The notes under the pieces were generated by a model. That model saw nothing but the letters and a program-made list of their open reading frames with translations, had not been told where the DNA came from and did no database searches. A stretch of DNA of 64,000 nt from Verrucomicrobiota bacterium (GTDB lineage Bacteria > Verrucomicrobiota > Verrucomicrobiia > Limisphaerales > JAFGQR01), in assembly GCA_016935555.1 (NCBI GenBank), contig JAFGQR010000190.1, forward strand, positions 1 to 64,000. Direction: 5' to 3'. A program made the translations under genes and the position numbers. The stretch's first letter is position 1. Each line of letters begins with the position of its first letter. Below, one piece after another: positions 29,054 through 34,414 of the stretch.

Positions 29054-29473
29054 ATGAACAAAGACGACTTGATCAAGGGACTGAACGAGGATCTTGCGGC
29101 CGAACTGGGCACGGTGATCCGGTATACCTACCAGGCGGGCAAGTGCTACGGGCCGCAGGGCGCCGAAGTGCGCGAGCTGTTGCGCAAAGACGCCGAAGAC
29201 GAACTCGGCCACGCCGCCTTCCTGACGGACGTGATTCTGGACCTGGGTGGCGAACCCACCACGACGCCGAAGTCGTTCGACAAGCCCGGCGACCTCAAAG
29301 GCATGTTGTCGGTCAACCTGGCCATGGAACAGCAAGACGTCGAACATTACATGGCCCATGCGGCACTGGCCGAGGCCTTGAAGCTGCCCGAACTCAAAAT
29401 AAAACTGGAGGAAATGGCGGCGGACGAAGCCGGCCATGCGCGGGAGCTGCGGCGCTTGTTGAAGGGACTGTGA
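29054..29473 (+). CDS. Ferritin-like di-iron protein
   Basis: 139 residues, a four-helix bundle. The two ExxH metal motifs are in DAEDELGHAAF (E50, H53) and ADEAGHAREL (E125, H128), with further Glu at E17 and E92. The set fits a bacterioferritin/rubrerythrin-like di-iron site. The chain is shorter than bacterioferritin (about 155-160), so cage formation is uncertain. Likely role: iron binding or oxidation in the cytoplasm. The stop overlaps the ATG of the next gene (TGATG), so it is coupled to the CooC-like ATPase. First gene of the cluster. Confidence 0.86.
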   Translation: MNKDDLIKGLNEDLAAELGTVIRYTYQAGKCYGPQGAEVRELLRKDAEDELGHAAFLTDVILDLGGEPTTTPKSFDKPGDLKGMLSVNLAMEQQDVEHYMAHAALAEALKLPELKIKLEEMAADEAGHARELRRLLKGL

Positions 29474-30387
29474 TGGAAGCGTCGACGAGACCTCTGAACG
29501 GATGCCGCCTGGGCCTGTTCGGGCGGGGCGGCAGCGGCAAGAGCACCTGCACCGTCTTGCTGGCGCGCGCTCTGAAGCAAGCGGGCTACGCCGTGTGCGT
29601 GCTGGATGCCGACTCGACCAACGAAGGGTTGCCTCAGGCGCTGGGCGCCGACCGTCCGCCCGCACCCCTGCTGGATTACTTTGGCGGCACCGTGTTCAGC
29701 GGAGGCCGGGTCACCTGTCCCGTGGACGACCCGATGCCCCTGGAGGGGGCGAGCGTGAAGGCCGACCGGTTTCCGCAGGAGTATGTGGGGCGGACGGCCG
29801 AGGGGATCATGGTGTTCGCCGCCGGCAAAATGGGGCCGCTCGGCCCCGGAGCCGGCTGCGACGGGCCAATGACCAAAATCGCGCGGGATTTCATGGTGCA
29901 AACCGAAGGGCCTGCGCCGGTGACGCTGGTGGATTTCAAGGCGGGCATCGAGGACTCCTCCCGCGGCGTCATCACCAGCCTGGATTGGGTGGTGGTGGTG
30001 GTGGACCCGAGTTACGCGAGTGTCCAGATGGCGGTGGCGATGCGGAAGCTTTTCGAGCAAATGCACGCCGGCCACCAGCCCGCCACGCAGCACCTTGCCT
30101 CCCCGGAACTGGTGGCGCTGGCCCGGCGCGCCTTCGAAACGGCCCGCACCAAGGGGGTGGCCTGCGTGCTCAACAAGGTCGCCGATGCGGATACCGACCG
30201 TGTGCTGCGGCAACGCCTCGCACAGGCGGGAATCACGCCCGTCGCGGCGATCCGCGACGAACCCGGCCTGCGCCAAGCCTGGCTCCAGGGCACGCAAGTG
30301 GACAGCCCCGCCGCACGGCATGAAATGGCCAAAATCGTCGAAGCCCTCGAGCGCATGACGCGCGAGGCATTTCCGGCACCCGCTTGA
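29473..30387 (+). CDS. CooC-like deviant-Walker ATPase
   Basis: 304 residues. P-loop GRGGSGKST (17-25), then VCVLDADSTNEGLPQALG (switch-like Asp), FAAGKMGPLGPGAGCDGP with a GxGC cysteine, TLVDFKAGIEDSSRGV and VVVVVDPSYASVQ. This is the SIMIBI family layout of CooC and its relatives, which insert metal into CO dehydrogenase or other enzymes. The usual first P-loop Lys (KGG) is Arg here. No CODH gene is in the window, so the client is unknown. Coupled to the ferritin-like gene upstream; the NifX-like gene follows after 13 bp. Confidence 0.82.
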   Translation: MEASTRPLNGCRLGLFGRGGSGKSTCTVLLARALKQAGYAVCVLDADSTNEGLPQALGADRPPAPLLDYFGGTVFSGGRVTCPVDDPMPLEGASVKADRFPQEYVGRTAEGIMVFAAGKMGPLGPGAGCDGPMTKIARDFMVQTEGPAPVTLVDFKAGIEDSSRGVITSLDWVVVVVDPSYASVQMAVAMRKLFEQMHAGHQPATQHLASPELVALARRAFETARTKGVACVLNKVADADTDRVLRQRLAQAGITPVAAIRDEPGLRQAWLQGTQVDSPAARHEMAKIVEALERMTREAFPAPA

Positions 30388-30400
30388 ACCGCCCCCCCCC

Positions 30401-30796
30401 ATGCGCATCGCCATTCCCGTCCTCAACCAGCACATCTCCCCCGTCCTCGACTGGGCGGAGCGTCTGCTCATGGTTGATGTTGTTCATGCCCGCGAGACGG
30501 GACGGCAATGGGTGCTGATCACCGAGGACCACCCGACCCGTCGCACCGAACAACTGGTGAACCTCGGCGTCGACGTTCTCATCTGCGGCGCCCTGACGCG
30601 TTACTTCGAGGACCTGCTCGCCGCCTGCCCCATCCGCCTCTGGCCGCGCCGGTGCGGCGACGTGGAGGAAGTCCTGGCCGCGTTTCTGCACGGCGACCTC
30701 GATGACCACCGCTTTTGTCTGCCCGGATGCTGCCCGGGCCACCCCCGGCGGCGGCGGCGCGAGGCGTCGAGGAAATCGGCCGCGAGGCGCTCATGA
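30401..30796 (+). CDS. NifX/NifB-type iron-molybdenum cluster-binding protein
   Basis: 131 residues. Start MRIAIPVLNQHISPVLDWAE matches the family opening (I-P-V, then S-P-V-x-D). Then LLMVDVV, a strand with LVNLGVDVLICGAL, and a Cys-rich end (RFCLPGCCPGH) followed by a basic tail. Relatives bind Fe-S or Mo/Cu-S clusters; beside nitrogenase they are NifX, elsewhere they are 'orange protein' type. No nif genes are nearby, so a nitrogenase role is rejected. Placed between two P-loop ATPases in one cluster, as in ORP operons. Confidence 0.8.
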   Translation: MRIAIPVLNQHISPVLDWAERLLMVDVVHARETGRQWVLITEDHPTRRTEQLVNLGVDVLICGALTRYFEDLLAACPIRLWPRRCGDVEEVLAAFLHGDLDDHRFCLPGCCPGHPRRRRREASRKSAARRS

Positions 30797-31017: not shown

Positions 31018-31617
31018 ATGAACCCGCATCCACCCCCGCCCCGTCGATCCTTCGATCCCGCCCTTGAGATCGCGGCGCGGCAGCGCCGTTTGCAGGGGCT
31101 GAGCCTGATCATGTATCCCGACCCGATCCTGCGGACCGTGTGCCAGCCGGTGGGGCGTTTTGACAGCACCCTGCGGGATCTGGCGGAGGAGATGTTCGGC
31201 CTGATGCAGGCGTATGCCGGCATCGGCCTGGCCGGACCCCAGGTCGGCCTGGACCAGCAACTCCTGATCTGCCGGCTGGAACAACAGCCCATCATTCTCA
31301 CCAACCCCGAGATCCTGGAAACCGGCGACCCGGGCGACTTGGAGGAAGGGTGCCTGAGCCTGCCCTCCATCCGGGTGCGCGTCCGCCGCCCTGAGCGGAT
31401 TCGCCTCACGGGCTATGACGCGGCGGGCGCGAAGAAGAGCCTGGTGGCGAGTGGCCTGTGGGCCCGGGTGATCCAGCATGAGATGGATCACTTGAACGGC
31501 GTCCTGATCTGCGACCACGGCCATCCGCTGGTGGAAAGCTGCCGCGACTGCCGCCTCACGCTGCCCCCGGTGCTGGTCGAAGAACGCAAACGGCGGTCGC
31601 GCCGGACGCGGTCGTGA
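31018..31617 (+). CDS. def: Peptide deformylase
   Basis: 199 residues. All three signature motifs are intact: GIGLAGPQ (68-75), EEGCLS (C112) and QHEMDH (H144, E145, H148); C112, H144 and H148 bind the catalytic metal, usually Fe2+. It removes the formyl group from nascent peptides. Extra features: a Pro-rich N-terminus of about 25 residues and a C-terminal extension with CDHGHPLVESCRDC and a basic end. Placement inside a metal-handling cluster suggests a paralogue linked to iron supply. The stop overlaps the ATG of the following membrane gene. Confidence 0.92.
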   Translation: MNPHPPPPRRSFDPALEIAARQRRLQGLSLIMYPDPILRTVCQPVGRFDSTLRDLAEEMFGLMQAYAGIGLAGPQVGLDQQLLICRLEQQPIILTNPEILETGDPGDLEEGCLSLPSIRVRVRRPERIRLTGYDAAGAKKSLVASGLWARVIQHEMDHLNGVLICDHGHPLVESCRDCRLTLPPVLVEERKRRSRRTRS

Positions 31618-32360
31618 TGATGAGCGGCAAGTTGCACCTGGTCCTGCGCGAGTTGAAGGTCCATGCGCCCTTTACCAGCATGGGCACCTTGACCGGCCTG
31701 ATGGTGCTGGGCCTCACCATGGCCGTGCCCCGGGCGTTCGCTGCGGGTTGCTTTTGGACGCTGCACCCGATCCACGTGCTGCTCAGCGCCATGGTCACCA
31801 CGGCGATGTTCCGCCGGCATGGCAGCCGGAGTTTCTGGGCGACCCTGGCGGTCGGCTACCTGGGTTCGGTCGGCATCGCCACCGTGAGCGATTGCGTCAT
31901 CCCGTTTTTCGGGGAATGGCTTCTGGCGCTGCCTCGCCGCGGGCTGCACCTGGGGTTTATCGAGAAAGCCTGGCTGGTCAATCCGCTGGCGCTGGCCGGC
32001 ATCGCCGTGGGCGTGCTTTGGCCGCGGACCAAGGTGTCCCACCTGGGCCACGTCCTGTTGAGCACGTGGGCCTCGCTCTTCCACGTCGTCATGGCGCTGG
32101 GCGACGACTTCCCCTGGAGCGTCCTCGTGGTCGCGCCGGTGCTTCTCTTCCTGTCCGTGTGGCTCCCATGCTGCACGAGCGACATTGTCTTCCCGCTGCT
32201 CTTTGCCCGCCGGACAGAACCGGCCTGCGCGGCCGGGGCATTTCCGGGCAACGGCATCCGGGTTGACTCTCGTCCCTTCGAAAGCATGAATCCCGTGACG
32301 CCCCTCACATCCCCCCCTGCGCAACCCGGGTCCGCTCCGGACATTGCGTCCCGCCCTTAA
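31617..32360 (+). CDS. His/Cys-rich multi-pass membrane protein of unknown function
   Basis: 247 residues, about six hydrophobic segments. Notable polar residues inside or next to membrane segments: H16 in KVHAPFTSMG, C45-H50-H53 (AGCFWTLHPIH), D92-C93 and E100, H142-H145 (SHLGH), H156 and C185-C186 in WLPCCTSDIVFPL. Such a set suggests metal or haem handling in the membrane, but I do not recognise the family. GTG at 31614 and ATGs at 31617 and 31620 are possible starts; 31617 overlaps the def stop. The last 45 residues are a Pro-rich, soluble tail. Same strand as panD and mrp. Confidence 0.7.
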   Translation: MMSGKLHLVLRELKVHAPFTSMGTLTGLMVLGLTMAVPRAFAAGCFWTLHPIHVLLSAMVTTAMFRRHGSRSFWATLAVGYLGSVGIATVSDCVIPFFGEWLLALPRRGLHLGFIEKAWLVNPLALAGIAVGVLWPRTKVSHLGHVLLSTWASLFHVVMALGDDFPWSVLVVAPVLLFLSVWLPCCTSDIVFPLLFARRTEPACAAGAFPGNGIRVDSRPFESMNPVTPLTSPPAQPGSAPDIASRP

Positions 32361-32755: not shown

Positions 32756-33625
32756 ATGAGCGAACCTTCAAAACCTCCTCCGTCCCCCTCGGCCTCTCCG
32801 GCGGAGGTGGCCAAACAGGACGCCGTCCTGCAGGACCGCCTCCGACTCATCCGCCACCGGCTGATTGTCCTGTCCGGCAAAGGCGGCGTGGGCAAAAGCA
32901 CCGTGGCCGCCAACCTGGCCTGGGCCCTGGCGCAGACCGCCCGGACCGTCGGCCTGCTCGACGTCGACGTCCATGGGCCGAGCATCCCCAAGTTGATGGG
33001 CTTGGAGGGGGCGCGCCCCGACATGGATGCGGCGGGGATTCGCCCCATCAATTTTGCGCCGGATTTGAAGGTCATGTCGCTGGGGTTTCTTCTGGAGACG
33101 GCGCAGGACGCGGTCATTTGGCGCGGCCCGTTGAAATACAATGTGATCCGGCAGTTTCTGCGGGACGTGAACTGGGGGCCGTTGGATTATCTGATCGTGG
33201 ATTCGCCTCCGGGCACGGGGGATGAGCCGCTTTCGGTGGTCCAGCTGGTCGGCCAACCCGCCAAGGCCATTGTGGTCACCACCCCGCAATCGGTGGCGGT
33301 GGCGGACGTGCGGCGCTCGATCACCTTCTGCAAGCAGCTCTCCCTTCCCGTCGCCGGTCTCATCGAGAATATGAGCGGCTTTGTGTGTCCGCATTGCGGG
33401 AAGGTGACGGACTTGTTCAAGGCGGGCGGCGGCGAAGCCCTGGCGCACGAGATGCAGGTGCCGTTCCTGGGCCGCGTGCCCCTGATGCCGGAAGTGGTGG
33501 TGGCCAGCGACGAAGGCACGCCATTTCTCCAGCGCTATGCCGGCACCCCGCTGGCGGCGTCGTTCACCCGAATCGTGGAGCAAATCCAGAAAGCGGAGGC
33601 CGCCCCGTCAGCCGCCCAGGCGTAG
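32756..33625 (+). CDS. Mrp/NBP35-family Fe-S cluster carrier ATPase
   Basis: 289 residues. Deviant Walker A GKGGVGKST (41-49), LLDVDVHGPSIPKLMG, YLIVDSPPGTGDEPLS, TTPQSVAVADVRRS and the Cys pair in ENMSGFVCPHCGK. The CPHC motif binds a bridging 4Fe-4S cluster at the dimer interface, so this is a cluster-carrying Mrp. The N-terminal MIP18-like domain found in many bacterial Mrps is missing; a 30-residue Pro/Ser stretch takes its place. Last gene of the tight same-strand run starting with the ferritin-like gene. Confidence 0.9.
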   Translation: MSEPSKPPPSPSASPAEVAKQDAVLQDRLRLIRHRLIVLSGKGGVGKSTVAANLAWALAQTARTVGLLDVDVHGPSIPKLMGLEGARPDMDAAGIRPINFAPDLKVMSLGFLLETAQDAVIWRGPLKYNVIRQFLRDVNWGPLDYLIVDSPPGTGDEPLSVVQLVGQPAKAIVVTTPQSVAVADVRRSITFCKQLSLPVAGLIENMSGFVCPHCGKVTDLFKAGGGEALAHEMQVPFLGRVPLMPEVVVASDEGTPFLQRYAGTPLAASFTRIVEQIQKAEAAPSAAQA

Positions 33626-33646: not shown

Positions 33647-33811
33647 GCCCGTGCCCCATGATCGACGCGAACCATGCCATGACCCGCATCCGGCCTGAGA
33701 CGGATCTTCGGCTCGTTCCGGGTGGCCCGGACCGTGCCACGGCGGGTGCCTTCCCCCGGCTTGCGGGAATCCGCCCCCCCTCCGGACATTTCCCCTGACA
33801 TCGCACGCCTT

Positions 33812-34414
33812 ATGTGGACCCCTCCCCATCAACCCAGACGACAATTCCTGGTGTGCACAGGCCTCGGATTATTGGGCGCTCTCGACGCCGCGGCGGCTGA
33901 GAGCCCCCCCCGGCCCGCGGCCCCTTTCAAGCCTTTGGAGAAGGGCACCCAGGTGGATCTCCGCGGCAAGGGCAAGGAGATGCTGCAACGGGCCTATCAG
34001 CTCGGGTACGAGTTTGAGAAAAAGCACGGCGGCTGCTGCCGCTGCACCGTGGCCGCTCTGCAACGCGCCATCGACTTCATTCCCCAGGACGACGATGTTT
34101 ATCGGGCGGCCACCTGCCTGGATGGCGGCGCGACCCCTGGCGGACTGCAGAACTGCGGAGCCTTCACGGGAGCGGGCATCATGATCGGCTATCTGTGCGG
34201 CACGGCGCCGTTTGGAGAGACGAGCCTGGCTCATCGCCTGGTGCGTGCTGTCTACGAAGAGTTCAACAAGGCGTATGGCAGTGTCTTGTGCAAGGATGTC
34301 CGACACAAAGGCCACGGCAACTGCCCGGAGGTCGTCGCCAAAGCAAGCCAGTGGACCGCAGAAGCAATATTCCGCCAGTTCACCAATTACCGTCCCGACG
34401 ACCACGCCAAGTAA
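33812..34414 (+). CDS. Exported C_GCAxxG_C_C family protein
   Basis: 200 residues from ATG 33812. A Tat-like start QPRRQFLVCTGLGLLGALDAA suggests export in folded form. Conserved Cys pattern: HGGCCRCTVAAL, then GGLQNCGAFTGAGIMIG (the C-G-A-x-x-G core), then VLCKDVRHKGHGNCPE. The family is small, redox/metal-associated and uncharacterised. Cys number and Tat signal suggest a cluster or metal loaded in the cytoplasm. It follows mrp after 186 bp on the same strand, so it could be a client of that cluster. An in-frame extension to 33722 would hide the signal. Confidence 0.76.
   Translation: MWTPPHQPRRQFLVCTGLGLLGALDAAAAESPPRPAAPFKPLEKGTQVDLRGKGKEMLQRAYQLGYEFEKKHGGCCRCTVAALQRAIDFIPQDDDVYRAATCLDGGATPGGLQNCGAFTGAGIMIGYLCGTAPFGETSLAHRLVRAVYEEFNKAYGSVLCKDVRHKGHGNCPEVVAKASQWTAEAIFRQFTNYRPDDHAK

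What the first reader, a model, noticed from the sequence alone, without database searches (positions are those of the whole stretch)
31617..32360. Unrecognised six-helix membrane protein with paired His and a CC motif
H50/H53, H142/H145, H156, D92-C93 and C185-C186 lie in or beside hydrophobic segments, a pattern expected for metal, haem or quinone handling. It is translationally coupled to a deformylase and flanked by Fe-S ATPases.
Basis: partly seen in the sequence, partly recalled or inferred. Interest (0 to 1): 0.66.

Follow-up and report, generated by a model that had tools for sequence, protein, structure and literature searches.

The report
Unknown membrane protein, likely nickel importer
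This unnamed six-helix membrane protein belongs to a previously undescribed family shared by anaerobic bacteria and archaea, and its invariant metal-binding residues plus repeated pairing with nickel- and iron-sensing regulators suggest that it carries nickel (or a similar metal) into the cell.

Summary
The ORF is real (GTG 31614 or ATG 31617 to 32360). It founds an undescribed family: no Pfam, NCBIfam or PDB hit, and no fold match. Relatives at 42-69% identity occur in Verrucomicrobiota and allied phyla, Planctomycetota, Chloroflexota, Thermoplasmatota and other archaea. AlphaFold gives a confident six-helix model (pLDDT 93). HxxHxxxS...SDxxxP occurs once in each half, suggesting a 3+3 inverted repeat with an outer His/Asp and an inner His/Cys/Asp site. 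In 8 of 14 usable Thermoplasmatota loci the gene is divergent from NikR, with all four nickel ligands kept; in 7 of the 8 a dyad lies between the two genes. In 17 of 31 Chloroflexota a Fur-family gene sits directly upstream. All 50 sampled carriers hit a nickel-enzyme family (three only by distant LarA homologues). The window's own genome has two NiFe-hydrogenase large subunits but no CbiM, NicO or NikA. Best reading: a new family of divalent-metal importer, most likely for Ni2+. Transport, metal identity and direction are inferred, not shown.

The parts
31614..32360 (+). Putative divalent-metal (nickel) importer; GTG start (or ATG 31617); conserved membrane domain is residues 1-200, followed by a poorly conserved tail
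31662..31664 (+). H17 codon, cytoplasmic end of TM1 (80/81 conserved)
31764..31775 (+). H51-P52-x-H54, TM2; proposed outer metal site
   Evidence: H51 and H54 81/81; helix 40-68
31887..31892 (+). S92-D93, TM3; proposed outer metal site
   Evidence: 81/81; helix 74-103
32040..32051 (+). H143-x-x-H146, TM5; proposed inner metal site
   Evidence: 81/81; helix 140-162
32166..32183 (+). P185-C186-C187-T188-S189-D190, TM6; proposed inner metal site
   Evidence: P185, C186, C187, S189, D190 81/81; helix 169-196
32756..33625 (+). Mrp/NUBPL (ApbC-type) Fe-S P-loop ATPase; this gene class recurs beside the family
30401..30796 (+). Small Nitro_FeMo-Co/ORP-like protein (weak Pfam hit, same class recurs beside the family)
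29476..30387 (+). MinD/CooC-like P-loop ATPase (start codon uncertain)
31018..31617 (+). Peptide deformylase, overlapping the start of the membrane gene (TGATG); association not seen in relatives

Best explanation
A new family of small secondary divalent-metal importer, most likely for Ni2+. Six helices with both termini in the cytoplasm form two three-helix units of opposite orientation. The outer unit offers H51/H54 (TM2) and D93 (TM3); the inner unit offers H143/H146 (TM5) and C186/C187/D190 (TM6), with H17 (TM1) near the inner face. A metal ion would bind at the outer His/Asp site, pass along the invariant Ser/Thr-lined faces of TM2 and TM5, and be handed to the inner His/Cys/Asp site and then, in some members, to a His/Cys-rich cytosolic tail or to metallocluster-assembly proteins. 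Expression is shut by Ni-NikR in Thermoplasmatota and placed under a Fur-family regulator in many Chloroflexota. Shown: the ORF, the family, residue conservation, helix count, NikR and Fur adjacency, the conserved dyad, and the presence of nickel enzymes. Inferred: transport itself, metal identity, direction, NikR repression and the two-site path.
For: Invariant His/Cys/Asp in 81 relatives; confident six-helix model. Charge bias puts the N-terminus and loops 2-3 and 4-5 inside (K+R 2.3, 2.9, 1.8 against 0.6, 1.1, 0.15 outside). Motif repeat in both halves: permutation p 0.007, hhalign P 0.003-0.012 over 13 columns. NikR divergent in 8 of 14 Thermoplasmatota loci with usable flank; all four Ni ligands align with solved NikR. 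Dyad TTATTAAC-N13-GTTAATAA (up to 2 mismatches) lies between NikR and the gene in 7 of the 8; it is the only site with up to 1 mismatch in G289 and G291 and the only site at all in G293 and G453. Fur directly upstream in 17 of 31 Chloroflexota loci. His/Cys-rich C-terminal tails in 15 of 90 loci. Nickel-enzyme families hit in 50/50 carriers, 47/50 if distant LarA-only hits are excluded, against at most 18/30 non-carriers (Fisher p 3e-4 on the stricter count). The window's genome has two NiFe-hydrogenase large subunits with both CxxC motifs and no CbiM, NicO or NikA-type hit.
Against: No transport data. NikR adjacency is confined to Thermoplasmatota; Fur adjacency points to iron or another metal elsewhere. 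Nickel-enzyme co-occurrence is confounded with anaerobic life. Many carriers also have CbiM (6/15 in the window's phylum sample, 9/15 in Chloroflexota). HupE/UreJ, UreH and CorA were not searched in the genomes. His/Cys clustering could not be measured because coordinates are not released. The repeat rests on short motifs. The genomic neighbourhood in the window's own group is Fe-S/MinD genes, not nickel enzymes.
Confidence: 0.5

Rival explanations
1. Importer of another or several divalent metals (Fe2+, Co2+, Zn2+), with nickel only one substrate or only in the archaeal branch.
For: Fur-family regulator directly upstream in 17 of 31 Chloroflexota loci and in L031; neighbourhood of Fe-S ATPases and Nitro_FeMo-Co proteins in about 25 loci; CbiM also present in 9/15 Chloroflexota carriers.
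Against: NikR with intact nickel ligands and a dedicated dyad in the archaea; nickel-enzyme families in all carriers. The Fur proteins score below every NCBIfam Fur, Zur and PerR cut-off, so their metal is unknown.
Confidence: 0.25
2. Metal efflux or detoxification channel, induced when metal is in excess.
For: His/Cys-rich tails and a metalloregulator next door would also fit an exporter.
Against: NikR usually represses uptake; the dyad flanks a TATA-like TATTTAAAT about 25-40 nt before the start codon, which fits repression; the family tracks nickel-using genomes rather than resistance islands.
Confidence: 0.1
3. Membrane partner of the MinD/Mrp/Nitro_FeMo-Co cluster: a redox or metallocofactor-handling protein that binds a metal, haem or Fe-S intermediate but does not transport a free ion.
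For: Adjacent MinD, Mrp, Nitro_FeMo-Co, DUF134 or radical-SAM genes in many bacterial loci and in archaeal L022, L024 and L102; the CC pair could be redox-active; MrpORP acts in Fe-S biogenesis (PMC6345978).
Against: Most of the Fur-linked Chloroflexota loci and most of the NikR-linked Thermoplasmatota loci place it with a metalloregulator and not with that cluster; two polar-lined halves look like a pathway.
Confidence: 0.1

Closest known systems
NiCoT / NicO (PF03824), 8-helix secondary Ni/Co transporters
   Same: Small integral membrane protein, essential His/Asp in helices, often beside nickel genes or NikR
   Different: No Pfam hit; profile comparison with seven NicO proteins gives probability 0.2%; six helices, not eight; no HX4DH signature
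HupE/UreJ secondary Ni transporters
   Same: Small, 6-8 helices with conserved His including an HP motif (own knowledge)
   Different: No Pfam or NCBIfam match; direct profile-profile comparison not run
Nik/CbiM (PF01891) and NikABCDE
   Same: Physiological role proposed here: nickel uptake, NikR-regulated in some organisms (PMC2667541)
   Different: Those are ABC/ECF-type systems; no homology, no ATPase transport partner here
Mrp/MinD/ORP iron-sulfur gene clusters
   Same: Recurrent neighbours of the family in bacteria
   Different: Soluble P-loop or cofactor proteins; not homologous to this membrane protein

Membership tests
NiCoT / NicO (PF03824) | Match to the family profile | tested here: not met
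   No Pfam hit to it for 35 members; profile-profile probability 0.2% with NicO proteins from the searched genomes
NiCoT / NicO (PF03824) | Eight transmembrane helices and HX4DH signature | tested here: not met
   Six long helices; no HX4DH in the sequence
HupE/UreJ | Match to the HupE/UreJ profiles | tested here: not met
   No Pfam or NCBIfam match at E up to 0.1 to any HupE/UreJ model
CbiM/NikM | Match to PF01891 | tested here: not met
   No match
NikR-controlled nickel importer (functional class) | NikR gene or NikR site adjacent | tested here: met
   8 of 14 Thermoplasmatota loci, with dyad in 7 of 8; not present at the window locus itself
NikR-controlled nickel importer (functional class) | Raises cellular nickel | not testable with these tools
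   Needs 63Ni uptake or ICP-MS
Secondary transporter with inverted repeats (general architecture) | Two homologous halves of odd helix number with opposite topology | tested here: inconclusive
   HxxHxxxS/SDxxxP in both halves, p 0.007, hhalign P 0.003-0.012; charge bias fits; no coordinates to superpose
Any fold in the PDB | Foldseek match at E below 0.001 | tested here: not met
   Best E 0.77, TM-score 0.23

The most novel reading that the evidence does not exclude
A previously undescribed, possibly new-fold family of nickel importer shared by uncultured anaerobic bacteria and archaea, with paired outer His/Asp and inner His/Cys sites, supplying genomes that use nickel enzymes but carry none of the nickel importers tested (CbiM, NicO, NikA).
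Probability: 0.4. Interest if true: 0.75.

Novelty: new variant of a known kind. Interest (0 to 1): 0.62.

Why it matters
Comparative genomics found 62 bacteria with nickel enzymes and no recognised nickel transporter, and only three nickel/cobalt transporter families in archaea (PMC2667541). A small single-gene importer with a NikR-linked promoter would help fill that gap and can be tested directly in a nickel-deficient laboratory E. coli. It would also give a function to a family now left unnamed across Verrucomicrobiota, Chloroflexota, Thermoplasmatota and other anaerobes, and could help explain why it sits beside Mrp/MinD metallocluster genes.

Tried and rejected
Family libraries: Pfam and NCBIfam, alone and for 35 members, gave only chance-level hits. 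PDB by profile: none. Foldseek against PDB and viral libraries: nothing below E 0.7. Homology with NicO: rejected. Prismane/CODH profile (PF03063) cannot separate CODH from hybrid cluster proteins, so it was not used as nickel evidence. Conserved minus-strand neighbour clusters proved to be antisense shadows of the family and ATPase genes. Nickel-importer absence as a strict rule: rejected, many carriers also have CbiM. Haem or quinone function: no supporting neighbour found. Papers on a novel NikR-linked transporter in Thermoplasmata: none in the library.

Full report
Observation. The frame 31614-32360 codes for 248 residues, starting at GTG 31614 or ATG 31617, the latter overlapping the deformylase stop as TGATG. 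The first 200 residues are conserved membrane protein; the rest is a variable tail.

Family. The protein has no Pfam or NCBIfam match, nor do 35 relatives above chance level, nor any PDB sequence match by profile. A scan of GTDB genomes gave 36 loci, mostly 42-67% local identity, from Verrucomicrobiota, Lentisphaerota, Omnitrophota, Planctomycetota, Hydrogenedentota, Dehalococcoidia, Aerophobetes, Thermoplasmatota, Hadarchaeota and Hodarchaeaceae. That scan was seeded partly by motifs such as WLPCCTSD, so I repeated it with a profile that needs no such motif: 19 of 289 genomes of the window's phylum, 15 of 293 Thermoplasmatota and 28 of 245 in the Dehalococcoidia class. The distribution is patchy. 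In the tree archaeal and Chloroflexota sequences interleave, while rows of the window's phylum form one starred group together with other bacteria of allied phyla; exchange between domains is likely.

Conservation. Over 81 different full-length sequences H51, H54, S58, S92, D93, H143, H146, S150, S154, P185, C186, C187, S189 and D190 are 81/81 and H17 80/81; C94 is 26/81 and H157 57/81. H51/H54/S58/T62 and H143/H146/S150/S154 follow an i, i+3, i+7, i+11 spacing, so each set lies on one face of its helix (inference from spacing).

Architecture. AlphaFold2 with 35 rows gives pLDDT 93.4, pTM 0.90 and long helices 3-37, 40-68, 74-103, 119-135, 140-162, 169-196. Loop charges place the N-terminus and loops 2-3 and 4-5 inside. 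The units HxxHxxxS and SDxxxP occur once in each half at offsets 92 and 97; six identities, permutation p 0.007; hhalign between halves P 0.003-0.012 over only 13 columns. I take this as a likely 3+3 inverted repeat, not a proven one. Foldseek finds nothing in the PDB (best E 0.77) or among viral models.

Regulators next door. In Thermoplasmatota a divergent NikR gene lies immediately upstream in L020, L022, L023, L025, L030, L105, L108 and L109, which is 8 of the 14 loci with usable upstream sequence. NCBIfam and PDB matches name it NikR, though below the curated NCBIfam cut-offs. A dyad close to TTATTAAC-N13-GTTAATAA lies between the two genes in seven of the eight (G289, G290, G291, G293, G295, G453, G357). 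Genome-wide it is the only site with up to one mismatch in G289 and G291 and the only site at all in G293 and G453; in G290 and G295 other matches exist, and the reversed control pattern is about as common overall in these AT-rich genomes, so the site is meaningful by position and not by count. It encloses a TATA-like TATTTAAAT before the transporter gene, which fits repression (inference). In 17 of 31 Chloroflexota loci, and in Aerophobetes L031, a Fur-family gene lies directly upstream on the same strand; its metal is unknown because it misses every NCBIfam cut-off.

Other neighbours. MinD/Mrp ATPases, Nitro_FeMo-Co proteins, DUF134, radical-SAM and metallo-beta-lactamase genes recur in about 25 loci, in bacteria and in archaeal L022, L024 and L102 (the labels of unscanned neighbours such as DUF134 are my reading of their sequences). 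The window fits this pattern: ferritin-like 29054, MinD/CooC-like about 29476, Nitro_FeMo-Co-like 30401, Mrp 32756. MrpORP is known to act in Fe-S biogenesis (PMC6345978). Fifteen of 90 relatives end in His/Cys-rich tails such as GCCGHHH.

Nickel use. Among 50 carriers every genome hits NiFe hydrogenase (PF00374), acetyl-CoA synthase (PF03598) or LarA (PF09861); three of them (G050, G081, G308) rest only on distant LarA homologues. At most 18 of 30 non-carriers do (Fisher 1.4e-6, or 3e-4 on the stricter count). In the window's phylum hydrogenase is found in 13/15 carriers and 2/10 non-carriers (p 0.0015). Anaerobic life is an obvious confounder, weak PF00374 hits may include complex I subunits, and two handles (G265, G310) appear to be the same genome. 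In the window's genome two hydrogenase large subunits keep both Ni-binding CxxC motifs. That genome has no CbiM, no NicO and no NikA-type hit of any strength. Six carrier Thermoplasmatota genomes (G291, G293, G294, G323, G375, G438) also lack all three. HupE/UreJ, UreH and CorA were not searched. Many other carriers do have CbiM, so the family is not a strict replacement.

Mechanism. Most likely a secondary Ni2+ (or broader divalent-metal) importer with an outer His/Asp site and an inner His/Cys/Asp site. What is shown is conservation, helix count, regulator adjacency and co-occurrence. Transport, metal and direction are inferred. Confidence: metal transporter of some kind about 0.8; nickel as main substrate and inward direction about 0.5.

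Comparison. It works like the small secondary nickel importers NiCoT and HupE but is not a member of NiCoT (tested, not met) and has no detectable match to HupE or CbiM. A 2009 survey lists only Nik/CbiMNQO, NikABCDE and NiCoT in archaea and notes 62 bacteria with nickel enzymes and no known transporter (PMC2667541). The literature library holds no paper on a new NikR-linked transporter in Thermoplasmata.

Noticed in passing
L010:5992-7224 and L035:1-795: In two Lentisphaerae the family protein runs in frame into a SAM-dependent methyltransferase-like domain, making a fusion of about 410 residues.
   Followed up: no
window 29476-30387: MinD/CooC-like ATPase with GCDGPM where, from memory, CooC has a CxC nickel motif; matches MinD and Fe-S carriers only over its N-terminal P-loop region.
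   Followed up: partly
window 33722-34414: C_GCAxxG_C_C family putative redox protein downstream of Mrp, start codon uncertain.
   Followed up: no
L008, L015, L016, L026, L029, L111-L133 (Chloroflexota loci): A Fur-family regulator (HHHH motif in several) lies directly upstream of the membrane gene in 17 of 31 loci; its metal specificity is unassigned and it may be a nickel or zinc sensor.
   Followed up: partly
L022:1809-6630: Archaeal cluster holding MinD, Mrp, Nitro_FeMo-Co, DUF134, DUF89-like, NikR and the membrane gene side by side, linking nickel regulation to the unexplained MinD/Mrp cluster.
   Followed up: partly
G081 (single-contig genome, window's phylum): Carries the family gene but no NiFe hydrogenase, acetyl-CoA synthase, CbiM or NicO; only a distant LarA-like hit. 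A possible test case against nickel specificity.
   Followed up: partly
window 29054-29473: Small ferritin-like protein (Ferritin and Rubrerythrin Pfam hits) just upstream of the MinD/CooC-like ATPase.
   Followed up: no
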